The notes beneath the pieces were generated by a model. It was given only the letters and a program-made list of their open reading frames with translations. It was not told where the DNA came from and did no database searches. Position numbers and translations under genes: made by a program. A stretch of 64,000 bases of DNA from Thermoplasmata archaeon (lineage in GTDB: Archaea > Thermoplasmatota > Thermoplasmata > RBG-16-68-12), in the NCBI GenBank assembly GCA_036395115.1, contig DASWDU010000044.1, forward strand, positions 1-64,000, read 5' to 3'. Positions 48,009 through 58,596 of the stretch are shown piece after piece (the first letter of the stretch is position 1; every line of letters starts with the position of its first letter).

Positions 48009-48974
48009 ATGCCACAGCCGTCCCCGAATCCGCTTGACCCCGACTGGGCGAGATTGCGAAAGGACCTCGTCAAGGTTCGGCGACGCCGAATAGCCCGACC
48101 AGGCATGGCTCGCCTGCTCGAAGAGTGGGCGGAGGATGTTGACAAGCAAATCCGGAAGCTCGCGTCCTACGGCGCCGAAGAGCAACTCAGGTTAATTTCT
48201 GCAATCTCGGCACATTTCCTAAGAATCCGCGCGTTGGTGGATGCGCTTTCCCGAGGCCTCGTCACATCTAACAGAGTCATTCACGAGTTGCTCGAGGAAT
48301 CCATTATAGAAATCTCGGGAGCGGCCCTTATCCGAGACATTGTGGTGGTAGACTCTCCTTTGGAGACTCGTAGTCTAGAATCGAAACTGGACGTCTCGTC
48401 CGACGAAGTCAGTTTCGTGCTCTTTGTCAAACCCGGAGTCGGCTACGACAAGCTACCTCTCCTTCCTCGGGTCGTTCATGAAGCCGCTCATTGCGATTTC
48501 GAAATCCGAAACTTGGTCGCAGACAGTTCTATTCGAGTGCGCTGGCTTGGAGAGGCCTGTTGCGACCTGGTTGCCCTCTGCCTCGCCGGACCCTGTTTTC
48601 TCATGTCAACCAGGGCCCTAGTCGAGCTGGTAGGCCCAGAGGCAGCTCGTCTTCCTGATCGGCGACACCCAAGCTTGGCTATGAGAATCTCCATTTTGAA
48701 GGCCGTTTCGGACCAAATATGGCCAGGTGGCCGAGTGCACGCATTTGCATTGGCAGAGCTCGGAAGGGTGTCGACCGTCGTTTGTCGTCCCGAGGATCTC
48801 GAGGACCAGCGACGACTGGAGCGGCAAGTTCTTGAAGCTCTCCCGCGCTATTCTAGGCTGAGCCGGGATCCTCAGCTCTGGCAGGACATCTACCAAGGTC
48901 GGACAAGCGACAGAACACGATCGGCGTTACTGTCCATGAACTATCAAGCGGCGGAGGGGTTCGAGAAACCATGA
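48009..48974 (+). CDS. predicted zinc metallopeptidase (HExxH)
   Basis: 321 residues. HEAAH at residues 157-161 supplies the catalytic Glu and two zinc His; GEACCDLVA about 21 residues later offers Glu182 as third ligand and Asp185, a gluzincin-like arrangement. The N-terminal half is helical and basic. No signal peptide or membrane segment, so it acts in the cytoplasm. No named family recognised. It is the first gene of a two-gene unit: its TGA overlaps the ATG of the next gene as ATGA. In an island with toxin-like genes, a peptidase plus DNA-binding partner could form a signalling pair, which is inference. Confidence 0.68.
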   Translation: MPQPSPNPLDPDWARLRKDLVKVRRRRIARPGMARLLEEWAEDVDKQIRKLASYGAEEQLRLISAISAHFLRIRALVDALSRGLVTSNRVIHELLEESIIEISGAALIRDIVVVDSPLETRSLESKLDVSSDEVSFVLFVKPGVGYDKLPLLPRVVHEAAHCDFEIRNLVADSSIRVRWLGEACCDLVALCLAGPCFLMSTRALVELVGPEAARLPDRRHPSLAMRISILKAVSDQIWPGGRVHAFALAELGRVSTVVCRPEDLEDQRRLERQVLEALPRYSRLSRDPQLWQDIYQGRTSDRTRSALLSMNYQAAEGFEKP

Positions 48975-49960
48975 GTCTCCACTTGCGTGACGAATTCGAA
49001 CTCTTCGAAGCATCGCACAAGGTGGCCGAGTTCCGGAAGGATCTGTTGAAGGCGGTTTCGAATGGTACTCTCTCGTTCGATCAAGAAGTTGTCAAGGAAA
49101 TGAGGGACATTGTTGCGAGGTTTTCCTCAAACCTTGACGACGCAGAATTCCTAAAGATGCTGCTTGAGAGGATTGGCAATCGACAACGCGACGAAGGCTT
49201 CTGGAAGGATCTTTCGGCCGCGGATGAGGTTCTCGTTTCGGTCCAGATGCGAATGCGGTACCTTCTGGACAGGGAGGAGTCTTTGGCGCCGACGGCGGAA
49301 TACCGGGATCTGTACGAGAGAATCACAAGCCACCTTCTTAAGGCGGTTGGACCTCGGGAGGTGCGTAACAGACAAGCGAGACACAGAGCCATCTTTGCAA
49401 CACTTCAGATCAGTCCGGGTCTCTATGTCGCCGAACTCTACAGTCGGCTTGTAGGCAGCGGAACCGTTCGTACCACCTATACGACGCTATGGAGCGACGT
49501 CCGTTGGCTTCAGATTCAGGAACAGCTTATTACGGTAGGCGGCCCCCAAGGAAGTCCGCGCTACTGCTTCCCTCATCCAAAGACGATCCAGAATCGGCAT
49601 GATTTCTACAACCGATTCTACTGTGCTGAAGGGATTGTCGACAAGAATCTTACGGACAGCTTTTCGATGCGCAAGCACTGGTTTGACATTTATAGGGTGA
49701 ATTCGATGACGAAAGCCCTGATCCTCGTACTGGAACACGGCGCTGTAAAGGGAGAGATGGTTGGTAGTCGTGTGAAGTCTTTCGGCAGACTACACAAGTT
49801 CGAGTCGGCGCAGAGAAGCCACGGACTCGATCCGAAGCCCGGCGTCAAGCCGGAGGATGTGCTGAGAGCGATTAACGTGACGCAGGTTCGCAATGGCAAG
49901 GAAGTGACTATGTGGCACGAGCGGCCCTACGGCGGTCCGTTGTCGCTCTACTCATCCTGA
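48971..49960 (+). CDS. unknown protein with a winged-helix-like region
   Basis: 329 residues, coupled to the peptidase gene by an ATGA overlap. Residues 1-125 are helical and charged; residues 130-200 look like a winged helix (HRAIFATLQISPGLYVAELY, then SDVRWLQIQEQLITVGG as recognition helix and wing); the remainder, from RKHWFDIYRVNSM, is a mixed fold without known motif. It may sense a signal and be cut or modified by the peptidase partner (inference). The 3' end overlaps the convergent PCNA-like gene by 13 bases. Confidence 0.6.
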   Translation: MSLHLRDEFELFEASHKVAEFRKDLLKAVSNGTLSFDQEVVKEMRDIVARFSSNLDDAEFLKMLLERIGNRQRDEGFWKDLSAADEVLVSVQMRMRYLLDREESLAPTAEYRDLYERITSHLLKAVGPREVRNRQARHRAIFATLQISPGLYVAELYSRLVGSGTVRTTYTTLWSDVRWLQIQEQLITVGGPQGSPRYCFPHPKTIQNRHDFYNRFYCAEGIVDKNLTDSFSMRKHWFDIYRVNSMTKALILVLEHGAVKGEMVGSRVKSFGRLHKFESAQRSHGLDPKPGVKPEDVLRAINVTQVRNGKEVTMWHERPYGGPLSLYSS

Positions 49961-50703
49961 ATGACCGCACCGATGAAATACACCAAGACTGCGTTTGGGT
50001 AGAGATATCTGACCCGCGCTTGACCGTCGTCAATCAGTGAGAGTTCAAGGCTTGACGGCTTCTCGTGAAGAATGATCCTTGACGCATAGTCAATAGCCGC
50101 CCTGTCGAGAAGGGTTGTTGCCTCCGAGCTCGATGTCACGCTCGCGGGCTCAAATCGATCATCTTTCGAGTTCGGGTGAGCGAAGGATATTCCGTCCTTC
50201 CTGAACGAGACCTTGAGCGTCTCAGTCGTCCCCATCGCGTCATGAACCTCCCGAAGCAGTTCAACAGACTGAGGGGTGCAACTGGCAGCCTTACCAAAGT
50301 CAAGGTCGGTTTTGGGCGCGAGTAGCGCATCGGGGACGTGCCTCAAGATTCTGGTCAGACTGCCCCAACCCTCAACTGAAACCCGAACCCGGACTCGAGC
50401 ATTGTCGAACTGCAGTGCTGCGTCAACCGGTGCGTTCTCGTGTCGGCCAATCAACGCGAAATCCAATGCGCTTGAGACATGTGCAGAAAAAAGACAGATG
50501 TCTCCCGGCTCCTTGCACTCATAGCTGGAAAAAGCGGACGGTTTTATGTCGAGGTGACCGACCAGATTGCGGTTTTTCGACATTGCCTCGTAGCGGAGTC
50601 GGGTGGCGTTCCAATGGAACGAGATTGTCTCGAAGGCCACGGAAGGGAACGCGTTCGACCACAGCCTTAGAATCGCAGGATTGTTCGTCCTTAGTGTTAG
50701 CAA
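49948..50703 (-). CDS. divergent PCNA-like sliding clamp
   Basis: 251 residues, TTG start 28 bases after a CTTTTAGC TATA-like box. Length and order match PCNA: N-terminal strand-helix unit (AILRLWSNAFPSVAFETISFHW), then GHLDIKPSAFSSYECKEP (PCNA: hxhxxxaFxxYxC), a first helix around SAHVSSALDFALIG, an interdomain region, then a second domain with LLREVHDAMGTTETLKVSFRKDGISFAH (PCNA helix plus strand), ATTLLDRAAIDYASRIILHEKP (PCNA YsldYL) and the closing RVRYLYPNAVLVYFIGAVIQDE, resembling the PCNA end with its hYhhAPxhxDE. Sequence identity is clearly low. A chromosomal PCNA should exist elsewhere; this copy is embedded in the island. Alternatives: another clamp-like or 9-1-1-type fold. Confidence 0.62.
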   Translation of the reverse strand: MLTLRTNNPAILRLWSNAFPSVAFETISFHWNATRLRYEAMSKNRNLVGHLDIKPSAFSSYECKEPGDICLFSAHVSSALDFALIGRHENAPVDAALQFDNARVRVRVSVEGWGSLTRILRHVPDALLAPKTDLDFGKAASCTPQSVELLREVHDAMGTTETLKVSFRKDGISFAHPNSKDDRFEPASVTSSSEATTLLDRAAIDYASRIILHEKPSSLELSLIDDGQARVRYLYPNAVLVYFIGAVIQDE

Positions 50704-50838
50704 GGCGGAGGAACTCGGTTCTGGATGCTAAAAGCGTTGTGGTCCAAAGGCTGGCTAGGAGGTGGAGCATTACAGATCGGTCGAACTTCCTGGACATAAG
50801 GGGGCGGACAGGCAGGAGACGATTCACAGCAATCACTA

Positions 50839-50856
50839 CCGATGGCGCACCATCGG
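50839..50856 (-). terminator. hairpin after the GHKL ATPase gene
   Basis: CCGATGG, loop CGCA, CCATCGG: a perfect 7-bp stem about 22 bases past the ATPase stop on the minus strand, before the promoter of the PCNA-like gene. It may end or process the ATPase transcript. No strong T-run follows. Confidence 0.4.
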
Positions 50857-50877
50857 GTTCGGTGGTCCGGCGAAACG

Positions 50878-53169
50878 CTACAGAGCTTCGATAGGAAGAG
50901 AGAGAACGGACACCACCTGAGCCACGCGATCCAGTTCAGCTGAACTGTCGCTCGAGCCGTTTGGTTCCGAATCAGGCAAGGACTTTCCCTTGATTTCATG
51001 TACCTTTCGCAGCAACAAGTAGAATGCGACACCGGCCAAGTACCGATCTTCGACTGCACGCGAGACATCCGCTTCGAGCTTCCTTCTACGTAGTGCCTTT
51101 GCGAGATTGAGGTTGTCCAAGCTCACGTAAATACCCGAATCCTCCGGTTTCGCTTTCTCGATGACAACTTTGCCTACCGACCTCTCGTCCCACCCAAAAG
51201 CGGCCCACACCGCAGCGTTGTCGGCTTTCGATACGGGGAAAATTCTCGGTTCCGGAAGCTTCTCCTCCCCGGGTTCCTTCTTTCTCTCGAAGGGCGGTAC
51301 GATTACTATGCTTCTCTCAACGGCGAGGACTGAACCGTCTGGGAGGTCGAGTTCGAAACGCAGCTCCTCTTGGGTCCCGGTCTTTCCTGAGGGGGGACAA
51401 TGTGCAAAGTAGGAGATTTTCCCGTTGCGAAGACGGGAGCTACTTCTGCGAATAGTCAAGCCGGTCTTGTGAACTCCGCGGAAGTGTGAGTCCCAATCCG
51501 ACTCGAAATATGAATCGACGGCGTCGGTTTCTAGCCTTACCAGAGAGTTCCCACCCTTCTCAATCGGGATTGGGTCCTTCACGTTTGTGATTCGGAGATA
51601 AGTTGGAATTGGCTTAAGGTCAGGACGATCGAGTTCCTCCTCTCGAATTTCCTCAGGTCCTGCGTATTCTCTTTCCTGCTTCTTTTGCTTCTGACCCTCG
51701 AGGGGCTCTTTTCCCCGTGCCAGAATCAGTTCGGCAAGCTCCGGGTTTTGTCCAATGTATCGGCCAACAAGACTTCGGATTTTCGACGTGTCGCGCTCTG
51801 ATCTCGCGGACAGAATTTTGACCTTCCTATCTCGTTCAAAAGCCAGGACGTTTCGATCTTGGCGCAGGTGTTGAGCCACCTCCTCCATTAGGTCTTCCTT
51901 GAACTCACCTTCCTTCAGTCGATCACGCGTACTAGACAGGAGTTCCTTCTTCGACTGATTTGTTAGCCCGTCACAGTCGACCTGAACGATCAGGTAGTCA
52001 TGCGAATAGGTTAGATTCACCCGGTCGCGCAGGAAGGTCGTTTGTTCGACTCCATGACGTTGTCCGTTCAGAGTCACATAGATCGCGTGATTCCCCGAGA
52101 CATAACCTTTCTTGATATCGCGCCAATTCTCTAGCTCGTCCGCTGGCGACAGAGCCCAATAGTTGATTGTCACCGAACCTCTTGTCCCGAGCCTTAGTTC
52201 GTATGAGTCGGAACTCCAGATCTGCGCCTTGTCTCCCCGCCCTCCACTCCAGAGCCTGTTTGCCAGGCCTGCGAGCGCTCGATTTCGGTTCTCATATTGT
52301 ACACGAGACTCGTAGAGCCTCATTGGCAGGAGAGGATCGAAGAGTGATTGGCTGAGAAAGCTCCAGGCCGTACTTGCCGGCTGAAGCACGTCGCTGGTAC
52401 CCTTTGGCAGGTCGTATGACACCAGACGAATCAAGGTGCCATGTTCGAAGGCTATACGGATTTCGCGGGGGTCACAGGTAGGAACCCTCCTGGTTCCAGC
52501 TTCAACGCAATATTCCCAACGACCTCGTTTGAAAATGACGTCTGGTGTTGTCATGTCTCGATAGCGGACGATGCTCCAGCCGACCAGGTCGTCCCGGCCG
52601 GCTTTCAATAGGCTCGACTCTTTTCTTGATACAATGATCCCGTACGTGCAATGGGCGAACGAAGTCTGTCCACCCTGTCCGAACGCACCCATCAGATACA
52701 GCTTCGACACTTTGTAGTCCTCGTTCAACCCTAACAACGTCGCGGGGAAGTCAAGTGGGTGTTGACCGATGCCTTGGTCTTGTATTTCGATGGTTGGGCG
52801 CTTCGAACTCTCGCTATCCATGAACTTGACTTTGATGTGTGAAGCGAGTTCGCCGATTCTCCTCTGCTCGCACCACCTTAGCTTGCCGTCCTTCAACTCG
52901 TAAATCGCTTCGACCGCCTTCCGCGGGCTAGTGGTTCTCTTGAGCTCAGGTCGGAGTTCGACTTGGAGTTCAATCATAGCATCGATGGCGTTTGTGATTC
53001 TCTCGGTAATCCCATCGTAGGGATCCGCGCCCATGGAAATAATCCCATAATTGCCCGCGTTGCCGCCAAGGGGAACCCATTCGATTCTGTTACTGAGACG
53101 CTCGATTACCTTCTCCACATCTCCAGCTGTAGTCGCCATCAATAACTCGTTGAGTTCAGAATCACGCAT
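50878..53169 (-). CDS. GHKL (Hsp90/MutL/MORC-type) ATPase, large
   Basis: 763 residues. GHKL ATP-binding fold in the N-terminal 250 residues: N-box TERITNAIDAMIE (Glu56, Asn60, Asp63), G1 IQDQGIG at about 130-135 (DxGxG), and the lid/G2 motif GAFGQGGQTS at 161-170. Then a MutL-transducer-like region, a charged helical section with KQKKQEREYAGPEEIREEEL (about 500-525), a beta-rich domain (PTYLRITNVKDPIPIEKGGN) and a C-terminal helical domain ending DRVAQVVSVLSLP. There is no histidine-kinase H-box, so it is a mechanochemical or clamp-type GHKL. It is the second gene after a small partner (8-base overlap). MutL/MORC-type ATPases linked to restriction-modification genes have been described in bacteria. 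Confidence 0.8.
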   Translation of the reverse strand: MRDSELNELLMATTAGDVEKVIERLSNRIEWVPLGGNAGNYGIISMGADPYDGITERITNAIDAMIELQVELRPELKRTTSPRKAVEAIYELKDGKLRWCEQRRIGELASHIKVKFMDSESSKRPTIEIQDQGIGQHPLDFPATLLGLNEDYKVSKLYLMGAFGQGGQTSFAHCTYGIIVSRKESSLLKAGRDDLVGWSIVRYRDMTTPDVIFKRGRWEYCVEAGTRRVPTCDPREIRIAFEHGTLIRLVSYDLPKGTSDVLQPASTAWSFLSQSLFDPLLPMRLYESRVQYENRNRALAGLANRLWSGGRGDKAQIWSSDSYELRLGTRGSVTINYWALSPADELENWRDIKKGYVSGNHAIYVTLNGQRHGVEQTTFLRDRVNLTYSHDYLIVQVDCDGLTNQSKKELLSSTRDRLKEGEFKEDLMEEVAQHLRQDRNVLAFERDRKVKILSARSERDTSKIRSLVGRYIGQNPELAELILARGKEPLEGQKQKKQEREYAGPEEIREEELDRPDLKPIPTYLRITNVKDPIPIEKGGNSLVRLETDAVDSYFESDWDSHFRGVHKTGLTIRRSSSRLRNGKISYFAHCPPSGKTGTQEELRFELDLPDGSVLAVERSIVIVPPFERKKEPGEEKLPEPRIFPVSKADNAAVWAAFGWDERSVGKVVIEKAKPEDSGIYVSLDNLNLAKALRRRKLEADVSRAVEDRYLAGVAFYLLLRKVHEIKGKSLPDSEPNGSSDSSAELDRVAQVVSVLSLPIEAL

Positions 53170-53650
53170 CGGCTACCAGTGCTCCAGTCTCCTTTTGCGC
53201 AAGAAACTCCAGCGTGTTTGTGAGGAAGTATTCAACTGATTCCTCGGAGGGATCATTACCGTTCGCGATGAGGATCTGTCGAACAACCTTTCGTTGTTCC
53301 GATTTCGCGATTTCTCTCCGCTCGAGAGCCTTCACGAGGGGTTCGTAAATGTTCGCGACAAGACCTTTGGAATTCTGAATCTTCGCGACCACGTTCCATC
53401 CACGAGTCCTGACACGGTTCCTTTTGCGTCTGCGCCGGCGTGCTCTCCCAGGCCTTCTTTCCGTCGATGGGTGGACCCTTTCCGTCGCCGGGTGGGCCCC
53501 GGATTCATCATCCACGAGGACTGCGAAAACAACATGGTCCTTCTCCAGATAGGGATCTACCCCAGCTAGGTCAACTCCATACTGTGTCTTCAGGAGATCC
53601 CGAATCTCCTCGACTGGAATCTTGAACAACCGTTCTTCGCGGACCTTCAT
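53162..53650 (-). CDS. small partner of the GHKL ATPase
   Basis: 162 residues, ATG start 26 bases after an A/T-rich box, leading the ATPase operon with an 8-base overlap. N-terminal part ERLFKIPVEEIRDLLKTQYG and EKDHVVFAVLVDD; a very basic linker (RPGRARRRRRKRNRVRTRG), then a helical C-terminal part (VKALERREIAKSEQRKVVRQ). Basic linkers of this kind often bind nucleic acid. No family recognised. Confidence 0.6.
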   Translation of the reverse strand: MKVREERLFKIPVEEIRDLLKTQYGVDLAGVDPYLEKDHVVFAVLVDDESGAHPATERVHPSTERRPGRARRRRRKRNRVRTRGWNVVAKIQNSKGLVANIYEPLVKALERREIAKSEQRKVVRQILIANGNDPSEESVEYFLTNTLEFLAQKETGALVADA

Positions 53651-53664
53651 GGCGTATCCTCTAT

Positions 53665-53690
53665 ACGCTATAATGTTTATAGACTTTACG
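53665..53690. promoter_or_regulatory. A/T-rich bidirectional promoter region
   Basis: CTATAATGTTTATAGAC is A/T-rich and roughly palindromic. On the minus strand an ATAAACAT box is about 26 bases from the ATG at 53650; on the plus strand it would start transcripts near 53702 for the RHH-methyltransferase operon. The RHH product could bind this shared region (inference). Confidence 0.45.
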
Positions 53691-53777
53691 GCGGTTTGGG
53701 TCGCAGAGGCGGCCAGAAAGAGTATTGTATGTCTAATTCATATCCTACGCGATACGAAAACGATATCAGGCGATACT

Positions 53778-53978
53778 CTGGCAGCTCCAAAACGAGTCCT
53801 TGTGACTTTTACGCCAGAGCAATGGCGAATCATCGAGTCGCTGAAAGGGGAAATGGGAAGAGGAGACGCAGCGGCCGTGAGGACGATTGTGATTTCCTGG
53901 TTGATTGAGAAAGGGTTCGCCCTTCAGGCGATTAAGAACAGGGCACGTAAGAAGACCGGCCATCAGAGGACTTCATGA
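53778..53978 (+). CDS. ribbon-helix-helix DNA-binding protein, start uncertain
   Basis: 66 residues from a CTG at 53778; the frame extends further upstream, with an ATG at 53673 that lies inside the promoter box, and a GTG at 53802. Core: KRVLVTFTPEQW (ribbon strand and helix start), IIESLKGEMGRGDAAAVRTIVISWLIEKG (two helices), the CopG/MetJ-type arrangement. A small basic tail follows. Its stop overlaps the methyltransferase start as ATGA. Probably an autoregulator of the divergent operons. Confidence 0.55.
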   Translation: MAAPKRVLVTFTPEQWRIIESLKGEMGRGDAAAVRTIVISWLIEKGFALQAIKNRARKKTGHQRTS

Positions 53979-54868
53979 TTCGAGCGAAGCGATCGGTTGA
54001 CCCTCGCAACCGGTTGAATGATCTCACCGGCAAGGAGTGGCTACAATTGTCTCGTTCATGGTGGTTCCAGACGGGGCTTGGCAAGAACCATCCTGAGGCC
54101 TCAATCGAGGCAATGCATCCCGCTCCATTCTCGTTTCACGACATCCGCAAACTTGTGCAGTTTTTCACAAAGCCAGGCATGACTGTCCTCGATCCATTCT
54201 GCGGCGTGGCTTCAACATTGAAGGCCGCTGCGTTGTGCGAGAGGAATGCGATCGGGATCGAACTTTCACCTCGCTGGGTACGCTTGGGGAAACGCCGTCT
54301 TGAGGAGGAGTTACCAGAGCATGTTCGATCCAAAGTCCGAATCCGATTCATCCGCGGAGATTGCATAAGAAGGCTTCCGAAACTCGCGAGGAAGAGCGTG
54401 GACTTCATTGTAACCAGCCCCCCCTACTGGAACATTCTCAACAAGGATCCCGATCACAAAGTAATCTCCGAGAGATTAGATCGAGGTCTAGAGACTCGCT
54501 ACTCGAAGAGCCTGTCGGACCTGGGGAATGTCGATGATTATGACACATATTTGATGAAGTTGCGTCGAGCATTCCGGCAATGCCTTGGGGTTCTCAAGCG
54601 TGGACGATACATGGTGGTGATTGTCGGCGACTTCCGTCACAAAAGCGTGTTCTACCCATTCCACATCCACGCTGCGGTTGAAGGCGAGAAAGCCGGTTTC
54701 CGCCTTCGCGGGGTACTCCTGCTCATCCAAGGCGAAAAGCGGTTGTTTCCCTACGGATACCCCTTTGACTTTGTTCCGAATATCCATCATCAGTACGCAC
54801 TGATCTTCCAGCGACCAGTTCGCTCGGCACCAAATCCTTCTCGAGTCTTCGGCATGAACGGACTATAG
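53975..54868 (+). CDS. site-specific DNA methyltransferase (N4-cytosine / N6-adenine type)
   Basis: 297 residues, ATGA overlap with the RHH gene. Motif I DPFCGVAST at residues 73-81 (SAM site) precedes motif IV TSPPYW at 147-152 (target amine); the order and the SPPY motif fit N4C or N6A amino-methyltransferases. The N-terminal SWWFQTGLGKNHPEASIEAMHPAPF segment and C-terminal GVLLLIQGEKRLFPYGYP are also family-like. No target-recognition domain of usual size and no obvious restriction enzyme follows in the operon; the GHKL ATPase operon is divergent. Confidence 0.88.
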   Translation: MIRAKRSVDPRNRLNDLTGKEWLQLSRSWWFQTGLGKNHPEASIEAMHPAPFSFHDIRKLVQFFTKPGMTVLDPFCGVASTLKAAALCERNAIGIELSPRWVRLGKRRLEEELPEHVRSKVRIRFIRGDCIRRLPKLARKSVDFIVTSPPYWNILNKDPDHKVISERLDRGLETRYSKSLSDLGNVDDYDTYLMKLRRAFRQCLGVLKRGRYMVVIVGDFRHKSVFYPFHIHAAVEGEKAGFRLRGVLLLIQGEKRLFPYGYPFDFVPNIHHQYALIFQRPVRSAPNPSRVFGMNGL

Positions 54869-55007: not shown

Positions 55008-55754
55008 TTATGTGACGAGCCGAACTGCGTTACTGACTATGCGCGAAGCCTCTTTCTGCAAGATTTCGTACTTGGCGGCCGCATTAGGGTCTTCTCCGGC
55101 ATGTTTGAGAACGCCGACGAGGAACTCGAATTTCTTCAATGCAGCTCCGAGGACCGAGACATCAACTTCCCGGCCTCCGCGATCTGGATCCAGTAGCGCA
55201 ATGATGTCACTTCGGTCCTTGATGACTTTTGTTTTCTCCCACGCTGGATTTCGACTCTGGTTATTCTCAAGGCGGTACGATCGGTCGTAGGCAGCTTTCA
55301 GCTTGAACAGAACGAGCAACGCACGTGAAGGGACCAGCACGGGTATCCTACCGAGAGTGCGTTCTATGGTCTGTCCCTCCAAAATCGAGAAGTTCAGTCT
55401 GTGTTTTCGACCCATGAAATAGTCATCTGCCTCTCGACGGGCAAACTCGACCACGATTTCGTCGGGAGGGGTCCCCTTCCTCATCGTAAGCCATCGTCGT
55501 GACTCGGTTCTGTCTTCGGTGTATCCATGGTTTTTGGCAAGCCAGTAACCAAGCCGTTTTCGAGTCTCAGAATTAGTCACGATGTCGATGTCGACGCTAC
55601 CGTAATAGTCGTTGTACAGGTATACCGCCCAGCCGCCGATGAGAACGGCAGGCTGCAGGCCAGGTCCGCCGCTCTTATTGTATTCAGCGACTTTTGCGAG
55701 TATTATCTCGAGTTCTCGAAAGCTGAGTTCGACGAGAGTGTCACGGATGGGCAT
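55008..55754 (-). CDS. nucleotidyltransferase, AbiEii-like
   Basis: 248 residues. Polymerase-beta-like minimal nucleotidyltransferase: GGWAVYLYNDYYGSVDIDIV gives the Gly pair (40-41) and the metal Asps (55 and 57) after Ser53; a third acidic residue lies in EIVVEFARRE. The C-terminal KDRSDIIALLDPD is the helical segment seen in AbiEii toxins. AbiEii proteins are the toxin half of type IV toxin-antitoxin phage-defence pairs. The start overlaps the end of the AbiEi-like gene by 14 bases. Confidence 0.8.
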   Translation of the reverse strand: MPIRDTLVELSFRELEIILAKVAEYNKSGGPGLQPAVLIGGWAVYLYNDYYGSVDIDIVTNSETRKRLGYWLAKNHGYTEDRTESRRWLTMRKGTPPDEIVVEFARREADDYFMGRKHRLNFSILEGQTIERTLGRIPVLVPSRALLVLFKLKAAYDRSYRLENNQSRNPAWEKTKVIKDRSDIIALLDPDRGGREVDVSVLGAALKKFEFLVGVLKHAGEDPNAAAKYEILQKEASRIVSNAVRLVT

Positions 55755-56718
55755 AGGGCTTCACCATCTCGAGCGCAAGATCACGTGAGCTGAACCCCAG
55801 CCCTGCGATATCCAATAGAGTCAGTTCCCAACTGGCCATCAGGATACCTTGGATGGATTCCAGCCCCTCCAACGGCCGGTCTGGTTTGAAAACGTTAGCC
55901 GTGACTTTGCCTGCGCCCGAGCCTACCAGTCCCAGATCATCTTCAGCGAGATAGAGATCGATCGACTTGAACTGCCGAGAATATCCTGTGCGAAGGGTTG
56001 CAGAGGTTCGCGCTGTGAATGCAAAATGAGCCCCAGCCCGCTTGAGGATTCGCGTTAGTTGTCGCGCTCCTTCGAACGCATTGTCGTATTCTGACGCAAA
56101 GACGCCGACTCTGAGGCTTTCGAAAGGCCTCTCCCAGGCAACACCATTGAGAAGCTTCTCCACGTCAAGGAATCGCACCATTGAGCCTTGCCGACCTGCA
56201 ATGCCTTCTCTGACTAGCCTCTGGACCGTCGCATGCGCCCAGGCATACGACACCTTGGACTTCAGAGCGAGTTGGCGTATGCTCGTGGTTCGAAGCTCGA
56301 GAAGTCGGCAGACTACCCGCCAGGCCTTCGGACCAGTCAACCGTGAAGCCTCACGTGACCCGGGACCCTGTGAAGGCTGGATCTCCCTGGACAGGAGCTG
56401 TGGCGGGGGCTCAAGTGCATCAGCTCCGATCCTGCGCAGAAGGCCGTCGACACTCGGGGGCACCTCCCGTGACACAAGGATTGGCCGGATCTTCAGATTT
56501 GGATAACGAGCCTCGTACAAATCGCGATACAAGGCGAGTTGGGCAACATCGCTCTGTGTAGCGCGCCTGGCTTTCACTTCGATTACGTAGAGAGTCCGAC
56601 CGTCTCTTGCGGTAAAATCTGGTCGAATTGAGTCGACTGCAGGCTCGCGTTTGAGTGATTTCTCAGGGAGATGGAGTCGATCGATGATATAGAACTCGAG
56701 CGGTTCTGGGGCCGGCAT
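55741..56718 (-). CDS. AbiEi-like regulator with an N-terminal PD-(D/E)XK nuclease-like domain
   Basis: 325 residues from the ATG at 56718, 26 bases after a TATA box. Residues 1-105 look like a PD-(D/E)XK nuclease: IRPDFTA (Asp34) and YVIEVKARR (Glu47, Lys49) followed by QLALYRDLYEARYP, as in RecB/Cas4-like folds. Residues about 130-195 are a winged helix (TTSIRQLALKSKVSYAWAHA, VQRLVREGIAG). The C-terminal part (about 200-325) resembles the AbiEi antitoxin domain. Usual AbiEi proteins have only the winged helix and C-terminal domain. Overlap with the NTase gene fits an AbiE-type pair. Confidence 0.68.
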   Translation of the reverse strand: MPAPEPLEFYIIDRLHLPEKSLKREPAVDSIRPDFTARDGRTLYVIEVKARRATQSDVAQLALYRDLYEARYPNLKIRPILVSREVPPSVDGLLRRIGADALEPPPQLLSREIQPSQGPGSREASRLTGPKAWRVVCRLLELRTTSIRQLALKSKVSYAWAHATVQRLVREGIAGRQGSMVRFLDVEKLLNGVAWERPFESLRVGVFASEYDNAFEGARQLTRILKRAGAHFAFTARTSATLRTGYSRQFKSIDLYLAEDDLGLVGSGAGKVTANVFKPDRPLEGLESIQGILMASWELTLLDIAGLGFSSRDLALEMVKPYAHP

Positions 56719-56740
56719 GCTATATCGTACTGCAACGATA

Positions 56741-56750
56741 CTATATAAGT
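56741..56750 (-). promoter_or_regulatory. TATA box of the AbiE-like operon
   Basis: ACTTATATAG on the minus strand, centred 26 bases before the ATG at 56718. Confidence 0.55.
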
Positions 56751-56753
56751 ATA

Positions 56754-56775
56754 TCACTGATATATGTCACTGATA
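56754..56775. repeat. direct repeat beside the AbiE-like promoter
   Basis: TCACTGATA occurs at 56754-56762 and 56767-56775, 13 bases apart, directly upstream of the TATA box. ATACT/AGTAT flanks the box itself. This suits an operator for the winged-helix protein; AbiEi antitoxins are known to repress their own promoters through repeats. Confidence 0.45.
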
Positions 56776-56903: not shown

Positions 56904-57623
56904 TCAGAGCTCCGAGGAAAGGACTGTTTCTGCTCCATTTACGAACCTCTCGATGAAGTCAGCACAGGACTCTGCATCCGCCCTGGCGATATCTCGTCGT
57001 CTTCCACCACCCCTTCGCCTGCCTATGCGGTCGTGTTCGTGGGCGATCTGGTTTCGTCTTTCGGCCCATCTGGACAAGCGGGATCTGATGGTGTCCTCCT
57101 CGAGGTCTATTTCCTCTCCAACTTTCGAGAAGAAATCCTCAACGCCGAGAAGCTTGACTGCGTCGAGGACCTTGTCAGGTTTCATGTAGGACAGCGTATA
57201 CAGCCGATCCTTCAGGACAGCTTTGATTTTCTCGTGTGGCCTGTTGTAGTATCGCAGCATCCTCTCCACCTCGAGGACCGGCATGGCCATGTTGCCTAGA
57301 GGCCCCGGCATTTTCTCGATGTCCGCATTCAAAATCGGAACGATGGCGTCCTCAATCTTCTGGTGGAAATAGGCATCAAGAGCGCTCAACGAGAAGACAA
57401 CAGCAGACCGGAGAAGCTCCTTCCTGTCCTCGGTAAGAAGGCCGGCGGTGCGAGCCGTTTTGTCATAGATTGCAATCAAGTTGCGTGCCGACTTGATGTT
57501 CTCCCCGAAATCCTCGAAAGCGGTCAAGCTTGCTTGCCAGCCACGAACCCCTTCGGTAGGGCCATAATTCTTTCGGCCTATGCCTCTAGAGTGGCGGCAT
57601 GATGCGATTGTCTCGCCTTCCAA
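56904..57623 (-). CDS. HEPN-domain RNase-like protein
   Basis: 239 residues, TTG start (other starts possible). An all-helical protein with VVFSLSALDAYFHQKIEDAI early (the RiboL-PSP/MAE_28990-type HEPN helix) and the RNase motif RNQIAH (Arg190, His195, an Rx4H motif) in WAERRNQIAHEHDRI, followed by a basic RRRGGGRRR loop and a short helix. HEPN proteins are metal-independent RNases frequent in toxin and abortive-infection systems. No MNT partner is adjacent, although the AbiEii-like NTase lies two genes away. Confidence 0.72.
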   Translation of the reverse strand: MEGETIASCRHSRGIGRKNYGPTEGVRGWQASLTAFEDFGENIKSARNLIAIYDKTARTAGLLTEDRKELLRSAVVFSLSALDAYFHQKIEDAIVPILNADIEKMPGPLGNMAMPVLEVERMLRYYNRPHEKIKAVLKDRLYTLSYMKPDKVLDAVKLLGVEDFFSKVGEEIDLEEDTIRSRLSRWAERRNQIAHEHDRIGRRRGGGRRRDIARADAESCADFIERFVNGAETVLSSEL

Positions 57624-57690: not shown

Positions 57691-58596
57691 ATGCGGGATC
57701 CCAGGGACGAGTTGCGGACCCTAGTCGATCGGGGCAAATTCCTGATTCAGGAGGCGGAGGGTGTCAAACAGGCTAGTAGGTCTTTGGATCCGAACGTCCA
57801 ATTGGGAGTTGGAGTGTTCGATCTCGCGGTTGGGCTAAGAGGACGAAAGAGGCTAGCCGCGGCTCTGGGAAAGACGTGGCTTCGAGGAAACCTCGTTCAG
57901 CGCTACTCGTCTCTGACAAAGAACTTCGATCAATGGTACACCGAGACGGTTGCCACGCTGCGGAGAATCTCGGTCGCTAGGAAGAACCTGGCTCACGGCG
58001 GCAACAGCTCCGCTCTCGTGAAACGCCTCGCCACGGCCAAGACCTACCGGAGGCTCGACACCCAGATTGCGAAGGCCGTCGGAACCTTGGAGGCCATCGC
58101 ATCGGAAGACTTGGTCTACAATGACGAGATCGACGAACTCCGTTTCCAACGGAAGAAGGAGGCATTCGAGGAGCTTCGTAGGGGCAGAGAGGAGCAACTC
58201 CTGGACCTGAGGAAAGTAGCCCCGGAACTCGGTTCTGTCAAACTCGAAAACCGTCAAGAACTTCGGACTCAGCTGGCCGGTCATCCCGAGGTCGCTCGGA
58301 TGATTGAGGGAGCGTTGGACACCCTTTCGACGACCGGAGCCGACGCGAACAGGCAAGCCCTTGCCTCTTGCCGTTCAGCGATCGAACTTCTCCTAATCGA
58401 GATGACCGGAGAAACTGAGTGGCGGACAGGGCTTAATGAGCTCGCCGCGGGGACCCGCAAGAAGTTGGTGGCCGGCACGTATGCCTTTCTTTCCGGGTAT
58501 GGGTCGCACCCCGGAGGCGTTACAACGAAGCGGGATGCAGAGTATGGGATACGAATGACTATCGCGTCGTGCTTGTGGCTCCTGGGTCGCACTTAG
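57691..58596 (+). CDS. Abi-like helical protein of unknown function
   Basis: 301 residues, divergent from the HEPN gene. Residues 1-190 are helical and basic with RKNLAHGGNSS at about 92-103. The C-terminal 100 residues (SCRSAIELLLIEMTG, FLSGYGSHPGGVTTKRDAEYGIRM, TIASCLWLLGR) resemble the C-terminal HEPN-like helical bundle of abortive-infection-type proteins. The AH and SHPG motifs could be remnants or variants of an RNase site. No named family assigned. Confidence 0.55.
   Translation: MRDPRDELRTLVDRGKFLIQEAEGVKQASRSLDPNVQLGVGVFDLAVGLRGRKRLAAALGKTWLRGNLVQRYSSLTKNFDQWYTETVATLRRISVARKNLAHGGNSSALVKRLATAKTYRRLDTQIAKAVGTLEAIASEDLVYNDEIDELRFQRKKEAFEELRRGREEQLLDLRKVAPELGSVKLENRQELRTQLAGHPEVARMIEGALDTLSTTGADANRQALASCRSAIELLLIEMTGETEWRTGLNELAAGTRKKLVAGTYAFLSGYGSHPGGVTTKRDAEYGIRMTIASCLWLLGRT

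What the first reader, a model, noticed from the sequence alone, without database searches (positions are those of the whole stretch)
49948..54868. Candidate system: clamp-like protein, GHKL ATPase, basic small protein, RHH and DNA methyltransferase
Two operons share one A/T-rich promoter: small basic protein plus 763-residue GHKL ATPase on one side, RHH plus methyltransferase on the other, with the clamp-like gene following the ATPase. MutL/MORC-type ATPases associated with restriction-modification are known in bacteria, but the combination with a clamp-like protein and without an obvious restriction enzyme is not one I recognise. The ATPase might load or act with the clamp on unmodified DNA.
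Basis: inference. Interest (0 to 1): 0.85.

Follow-up and report, generated by a model that had tools for sequence, protein, structure and literature searches.

The report
Methyltransferase-linked Hsp90-like ATPase defence module
This archaeal genome carries a small gene cluster that pairs a DNA-marking enzyme with a gyrase/Hsp90-like ATPase and a small basic protein; similar pairs occur in distant archaea and bacteria, so it looks like an uncharted relative of restriction-modification defence in which the destroying step is not done by a recognisable nuclease.

Summary
Four of the five genes form a recurring module; the "clamp-like" fifth does not. The 763-aa protein is a GHKL ATPase by family and fold tests, with invariant catalytic columns, no Pfam, NCBIfam or PADLOC model of its own and no recognisable nuclease part. 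Of 20 distinct loci found with ATPase queries, 9 have a DNA methyltransferase within three genes, 5 have phosphorothioation genes nearby, 5 show neither and 1 is cut by a contig end. In the reverse search with a bacterial methyltransferase subfamily, 2 of 3 new loci carry the ATPase; for the window's own methyltransferase type, 0 of 2 relatives examined do. Small basic proteins precede several copies; the RHH-like gene recurs in G356. One copy lies beside Thoeris. Best reading: a modification-based defence module in which the methyltransferase marks self and the ATPase with its DNA-binding partner acts on unmarked DNA. How it restricts is inferred. It works like the MORC/paraMORC systems of Iyer et al. 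2008, but lacks the MORC motif; membership of a numbered paraMORC family is undecided. The clamp-like protein has no relative in 21 other ATPase loci; its fold is inconclusive.

The parts
50878..53169 (-). GHKL ATPase, 763 aa: GHKL + transducer (S5) module about residues 30-455, then strands about 525-623 and C-terminal helices (the latter of low confidence)
53162..53650 (-). small basic protein, 162 aa, pI 9.7; relatives in G395 (40% identity), upstream of the same ATPase family, and in G507 (56%), upstream of a 678-aa gene in which I read GHKL motifs by eye only
53622..53978 (+). RHH-like small DNA-binding protein (ORF bounds; start uncertain, last standard start before the conserved part is ATG 53673); conserved with the methyltransferase in G356
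   Evidence: RHH assignment read from the pattern only
53975..54868 (+). DNA methyltransferase, 297 aa, motif I (DPFCG) before motif IV (TSPPYW); 58% identical copy in G356
53651..53786 (.). putative divergent control region, 46% GC, with TATAAA at 53676-53681 on the minus strand; may overlap the RHH coding start
   Evidence: TATA assignment by reading
49948..50703 (-). clamp-like orphan protein, 251 aa: a neighbour, not shown to belong to the module

Best explanation
A mobile, modification-based defence module. The methyltransferase marks the host's own DNA. The GHKL ATPase, with its small basic DNA-binding partner, is the sensing and restricting half: it meets DNA, closes an ATP-driven dimer gate on it, and acts only where the mark is missing. 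The RHH protein most likely represses the divergent operons. SHOWN: gene anatomy; GHKL identity and intact catalytic motifs; recurrence near DNA-modification genes of different chemistry; recurrence of small basic proteins before the ATPase; accessory, low-GC location. INFERRED: that the basic protein binds DNA, that the mark is read by the ATPase complex, that the outcome is restriction of foreign DNA, and how (compaction or silencing by the ATPase itself, or recruitment of a nuclease).
For: 9 of 20 distinct ATPase loci have a DNA methyltransferase within three genes: the window; G356; G395 and G456; L028, L030 and L031; Halarchaeum and Natronobeatus (C5 type, by record annotation). 5 of 20 lie near phosphorothioation genes: Devosia (SspB and SspC by model), Ensifer and Hymenobacter (by record annotation only), Rhodococcus and L026 (DndB by model). 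Reverse search with the bacterial methyltransferases (built from L028, L030, L031): 6 loci, of which 3 are those three and 2 of the 3 new ones (L036, L037) carry the ATPase. G000 has only 3 N6/N4 methyltransferase genes, so chance neighbourhood is unlikely (rough, one-genome background). ATPase columns E56, N60, D131, G133, G135, K153, G161, G166 and R415 are invariant in the 21-22 rows that cover them, a few rows being pieces or a duplicate of one gene. Small basic proteins (pI 9.7-10.0) precede the ATPase in the window, G395, L030, L036 and L037. L030 lies beside Thoeris. 0 of 18 same-genus genomes match the ATPase (many incomplete).
Against: No experiment. No destroying activity was identified in the module. 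5 of 20 loci show no DNA-modification gene (G394, Pontibacillus, Haladaptatus, L025, L027; by annotation or by reading ORF lists), so the ATPase also has other uses. For the window's own type of methyltransferase, the order search found 4 other genomes; the 2 I fetched (G453, cut on one side, and G425) have no ATPase nearby, and G416 and G471 were not examined. The small partner differs: G356 has an unrelated 235-aa gene, and the bacterial small proteins are another family. L039 has the methyltransferase without the ATPase. Several copies are fragmented (G356 split over two contigs; G395 and L037 in two frames), by assembly or decay.
Confidence: 0.57

Rival explanations
1. An ordinary restriction-modification system whose nuclease is encoded apart from the core: the ATPase is only the motor or switch, as MutL is for MutH, and a nearby or unlinked nuclease cuts.
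For: G395 has an SRA-HNH endonuclease convergent to the ATPase. The window has a NucS_C-type domain gene at 55741-56757, two genes beyond the methyltransferase. Rhodococcus has an annotated NgoMIV-type restriction enzyme with C5 methyltransferase and Vsr some 4-6 kb from the ATPase, and Halarchaeum a helicase-related gene next to it. Iyer et al. 2008 describe MORC and paraMORC genes with helicases and nucleases (PMC2292703, parts 1 and 2 of 4 read).
Against: By eye, without models, I saw no nuclease gene directly beside the pair in L028, L030, L031, L036 or L037 (ORF lists). The window's NucS_C-type gene overlaps a nucleotidyltransferase-like gene and reads better as a separate pair.
Confidence: 0.24
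2. A regulatory or maintenance module rather than defence: the ATPase remodels methylated host or plasmid DNA, for example in segregation or gene control.
For: MORC proteins compact DNA or chromatin in eukaryotes (abstract starts PMC12216690, PMC8277788, seen). Copies lie on plasmids and on large virus-like contigs without a methyltransferase seen.
Against: Patchy distribution (5 of 400 class genomes, own included), low-GC island, and neighbours such as Thoeris and Ssp genes point to defence.
Confidence: 0.13
3. The first reader's five-gene system in which the ATPase loads a dedicated clamp.
For: The clamp-like gene follows on the same strand. Two NCBIfam PCNA models match its N-terminus collinearly at E 0.13. 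36 of the 50 listed Foldseek rows for its low-confidence model are PCNA or beta clamps, best E 0.017, TM-scores about 0.1-0.25; one 9-1-1 clamp chain ranks third on VIA (Z 5.9, rmsd 2.7, 58 aligned).
Against: No relative in 21 other ATPase loci; 174-bp gap with its own start; profile comparison fails; model pLDDT 51.
Confidence: 0.04

Closest known systems
MORC / paraMORC ATPases of restriction-modification loci (Iyer, Abhiman and Aravind 2008, PMC2292703)
   Same: GHKL + S5 ATPase beside DNA methyltransferases, patchy distribution; that paper notes a minority of loci with methylase or nuclease but no helicase
   Different: MORC S5 motif absent in 26 of 26 rows, about 23 of which cover the region; no helicase beside the window copy; small basic partner; which numbered paraMORC family, if any, could not be tested
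Ssp / Dnd phosphorothioation defence
   Same: relatives of the ATPase lie near SspB, SspC, PAPS-reductase-type genes or DndB in 5 of 20 loci
   Different: the window has a DNA methyltransferase; no known Ssp or Dnd effector showed among the 7 neighbours of Devosia and Rhodococcus scanned with PADLOC; other neighbours not scanned
Type II restriction-modification
   Same: stand-alone DNA methyltransferases matching PADLOC MTase_II models
   Different: no restriction endonuclease recognised in the module; a GHKL ATPase takes its place
HEF_HK / Response_reg_2 elements (PMC8011034)
   Same: GHKL proteins near modification genes; HEF_HK hit in a Devosia neighbour
   Different: the window protein has no HEF_HK or HATPase_c hit
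paraMORC-HEPN (Ymh) fusions (PMC3710099, passages)
   Same: GHKL ATPase in restriction-modification neighbourhoods with extra C-terminal part
   Different: no HEPN Pfam hit in the 9 family members scanned; low-confidence C-terminal helices leave this open

Membership tests
GHKL ATPase superfamily | Bergerat fold with N-box and glycine motifs | tested here: met
   invariant motif columns; HATPase_c_3 hits in 4 of 9 members; Hsc82 Z 19.2, rmsd 4.3, 301 aligned; Morc3 Z 17.4, rmsd 4.0, 290 aligned
MORC | GhXhhpXXRhl motif in the S5 domain | tested here: not met
   0 of 26 rows match the pattern as I coded it from the paper; about 23 rows cover the region
paraMORC3 | C-terminal restriction-endonuclease-fold domain, E-D-ExK | tested here: inconclusive
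   no conserved acidic/lysine set in the C-terminal half, but that part of the model is of low confidence
paraMORC1, 2, 4, 5 | family alignments; TIR (4), HxH (5), ExxxH (2) | not testable with these tools
   the paper's alignments are in a supplement I could not use; HxH is absent in the window protein; no TIR Pfam hit in the 9 members scanned; ExxxH not tested
Type II restriction-modification | cognate restriction endonuclease beside the methyltransferase | tested here: inconclusive
   no nuclease model hit in the four module genes, but a NucS_C-type gene lies two genes beyond the methyltransferase
N4/N6 DNA methyltransferase | N6_N4_Mtase domain with catalytic xPPY | tested here: met
   PF01555 1.8e-22, TSPPYW; m4C versus m6A not testable
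PCNA / sliding clamp | PCNA sequence profile and fold | tested here: inconclusive
Ribbon-helix-helix regulator | RHH profile match | tested here: inconclusive
   no Pfam hit in the two copies; pattern only

The most novel reading that the evidence does not exclude
A nuclease-free restriction system: an Hsp90/MORC-like ATP-gated protein clamp, steered by a small basic protein, traps and compacts DNA that lacks the host's mark. This would be a prokaryotic counterpart of MORC silencing that can be coupled to different marks (N-methylation, C5-methylation, phosphorothioation).
Probability: 0.24. Interest if true: 0.88.

Novelty: new variant of a known kind. Interest (0 to 1): 0.6.

Why it matters
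GHKL ATPases that recur near several kinds of DNA mark, without a recognisable nuclease, would make a proposal of Iyer et al. 2008 testable: that MORC-type silencing grew out of modification-linked prokaryotic systems. It would also add to the known ways of restricting DNA without an obvious cutter, as in BREX (recalled).

Tried and rejected
The clamp-like gene as a member: no clear relatives, no PCNA profile match, single-sequence model pLDDT 51, no Foldseek match at 0.001, the two best VIA rows not clamps and the third a 9-1-1 chain over 58 residues. A nuclease hidden in the ATPase's C-terminus: no conserved acidic/lysine set, not excluded structurally. Relatives of the ATPase in annotated phages: none at 1e-3 and 1e-5. 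The one genome-contig scan, with narrow patterns, gave only the G356 record. Three single-sequence viral scans found nothing. A tRNA call inside an ORF was not supported by Rfam. Two weak basic-protein hits with stops (G370, G432) were dropped. L024 repeats L025 letter for letter and was counted once. L036 and L037, found through the methyltransferase, were left out of the 20. A small generic SAM methyltransferase next to the Devosia copy and a DPPY-containing gene four genes from the L026 copy were not counted as DNA methyltransferase neighbours. The 678-aa gene beside the basic protein in G507 is GHKL only by my eye: the family HMM does not hit it and profile comparison gives probability 0.4%. 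Papers: in the rows listed (25 of 1,935; 15 of 53; 7 of 7; 12 of 103; 4 of 4; 0 papers; 6 of 132) I saw no description of this combination; open-access library only, mostly titles and abstract starts.

Changes after the self-check: confidence lowered from 0.60 to 0.57 and the rival of a separate nuclease raised to 0.24, because the reverse count was restated (3 of the 6 loci were the query's own) and the NucS_C-type, Rhodococcus and G453/G425 results were given their weight.
Full report
WHAT IS THERE. The genes are as described: two divergent pairs, basic protein + ATPase (8-bp overlap) and RHH-like + methyltransferase (4-bp overlap), with the clamp-like gene 174 bp after the ATPase. They sit in a low-GC stretch at about 48-60 kb of a 2.40-Mb genome in 50 contigs, archaeal by its PCNA and proteasome genes and its kin. 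Of the 18 same-genus genomes in the class search, 0 match the ATPase (many are incomplete), so the module is accessory.

THE ATPASE. Alone it hits no Pfam GHKL model, no PADLOC or NCBIfam family and no PDB sequence. Relatives do: HATPase_c_3 in 4 of 9 members, best 9.5e-6, and a six-sequence profile finds topoisomerase VI-B at E 0.009. In a 26-row alignment, in which some genes appear as two pieces and G356 twice, E56, N60, D131, G133, G135, K153, G161, G166 and R415 are invariant in the 21-22 rows that cover them, so it should hydrolyse ATP. The predicted structure (pLDDT 68, pTM 0.61, 12 rows) matches GyrB (Foldseek 8.2e-9) and MORC4 (3.7e-7). On VIA it matches Hsc82 (Z 19.2, rmsd 4.3, 301 aligned), Morc3 (Z 17.4, 4.0, 290) and MORC4 (Z 15.7, 3.8, 283). 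These matches cover about residues 35-455; the C-terminal part is of low confidence and barely tested.

WHO ELSE HAS IT. Searches with ATPase queries gave 20 distinct loci: 5 in the archaeal class, 8 on plasmids and 7 in viral-contig records (8 contigs, L024 and L025 identical). Annotated phages gave none. Contexts: 9 of 20 have a DNA methyltransferase within three genes, namely the window; G356, where RHH + methyltransferase (58% identical) run tail-to-tail into the ATPase; G395 and G456 with a second methyltransferase type; L028, L030, L031 with a third; Halarchaeum and Natronobeatus with C5 methyltransferases by annotation, the former also with a helicase-related gene. 5 of 20 lie near phosphorothioation genes: Devosia, SspB and SspC by model; Ensifer and Hymenobacter by record annotation only; Rhodococcus and L026, DndB by model. 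5 of 20 show neither, judged by annotation or by reading ORF lists (G394, Pontibacillus, Haladaptatus, L025, L027), and L029 is cut by its contig end.

THE REVERSE TESTS. A scan with the bacterial methyltransferases of L028, L030 and L031 gave 6 loci: those three, L036 and L037, which also carry the ATPase, and L039, which does not; so 2 of 3 new loci. For the window's methyltransferase type the result goes the other way: 5 of 37 genomes of the order match, own included; the two fetched, G453 (cut on one side) and G425, have no ATPase nearby, and G416 and G471 were not looked at. For the basic protein, 3 clear hits in 300 class genomes, all directly upstream of a GHKL-type gene, the one in G507 by eye only. 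G000 has 3 N6/N4 methyltransferase genes, so 4 of 5 in the class is far from chance (rough, as the background is one genome and in the window and G395 the gene is not the immediate neighbour). On a 21-row tree the methyltransferase-linked members fall in both deep groups; presence or absence of a modification gene takes at least 3 changes (several long branches).

THE SMALL PARTNERS. The basic protein (pI 9.7) is 40% identical to that of G395 and 56% to that of G507. L030, L036 and L037 have an 86-89-aa basic protein of another family in the same place. G356 has an unrelated 235-aa gene there. That these proteins bind DNA is inferred from charge.

THE CLAMP-LIKE GENE. It is an orphan: two partial hits at E 0.001 and 0.007 in 389 phylum genomes besides itself, none in viral contigs or plasmids, none at 0.01 in 21 other ATPase loci. 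PCNA tests are negative or weak, although 36 of the 50 Foldseek rows listed are sliding clamps, at poor scores. The genome's ordinary PCNA is elsewhere. By eye its strand-helix pattern does resemble PCNA; I leave this open.

HOW IT PROBABLY WORKS. The methyltransferase (motif IV TSPPYW; m4C by recalled rule, m6A possible) marks self. GHKL proteins of this build close as ATP-driven dimer gates (established for GyrB, Hsp90, MORC; recalled). MORC2 is titled a DNA compaction machine and C. elegans MORC-1 is said to entrap DNA topologically (PMC12216690 and PMC8277788, title and abstract start). I infer that the ATPase with its basic partner closes on unmarked DNA and silences it or calls a nuclease. 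G395's SRA-HNH neighbour, the window's NucS_C-type gene and the NgoMIV-type set near the Rhodococcus copy keep the nuclease option open. Thoeris beside L030 supports a defence setting.

WHAT IS KNOWN. Iyer et al. 2008 (PMC2292703, parts 1 and 2 of 4 and passages read) describe MORC and paraMORC1-5 in restriction-modification loci, mostly with helicases, and a minority with methylase or nuclease but no helicase. Bellieny-Rabelo et al. 2021 (PMC8011034, part 1 of 7 and passages) link a related GHKL kinase to such loci; its domain occurs near the Devosia copy. PMC3710099 (passages) reports paraMORC-HEPN fusions. A V. cholerae Shedu protein has a GHKL domain fused to a nuclease (PMC12137116, passages). 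In the phosphorothioation review PMC10853773 the terms MORC, Hsp90, MutL, gyrase and histidine kinase do not occur in the text searched. So the kind is known, and this family and combination appear to be an undescribed variant within the listings I saw of an open-access library.

Noticed in passing
window 55008-56757 (-): Nucleotidyltransferase-like gene (weak hit, E 0.16) overlapping a gene with a NucS_C-type domain (E 1.7e-5); looks like a separate toxin-antitoxin-like pair, but is a candidate nuclease for the module.
   Followed up: partly
window 56904-57623 (-): RiboL-PSP-HEPN domain protein (E 7.9e-9), a further defence-type gene in the island.
   Followed up: no
window 48009-49960 (+): Two overlapping genes without a convincing family hit; the first has an HEAAH metalloprotease-like motif, by eye.
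   Followed up: no
window 57968-58041 (-): ARAGORN tRNA-Asn call inside a 301-aa ORF on the other strand; Rfam finds nothing there, so probably false.
   Followed up: yes
L088 5920-9409: Basic protein followed with 4-bp overlap by a 678-aa gene with GHKL-like motifs (by eye) and a 299-aa gene, no Pfam or PADLOC hits: possibly a sister system.
   Followed up: partly
L020 6846-7535: SRA-HNH endonuclease tail-to-tail with the ATPase in G395.
   Followed up: partly
L030 11903-13932: Thoeris ThsA and ThsB genes next to the ATPase-methyltransferase pair.
   Followed up: yes
L025, L027: ATPase relatives on very large virus-like contigs (372 and 597 kb) with no methyltransferase seen; that of L025 has an HTH-like N-terminal extension, by eye.
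   Followed up: no
L079, L080, L081, L082: Second PCNA-type genes in four genomes of the order, some with long acidic N-terminal extensions.
   Followed up: no
L004, L005: HATPase_c_3 + HATPase_c sensor-kinase-like genes near the ATPase and phosphorothioation genes; HEF_HK domain hit in L004 only.
   Followed up: partly
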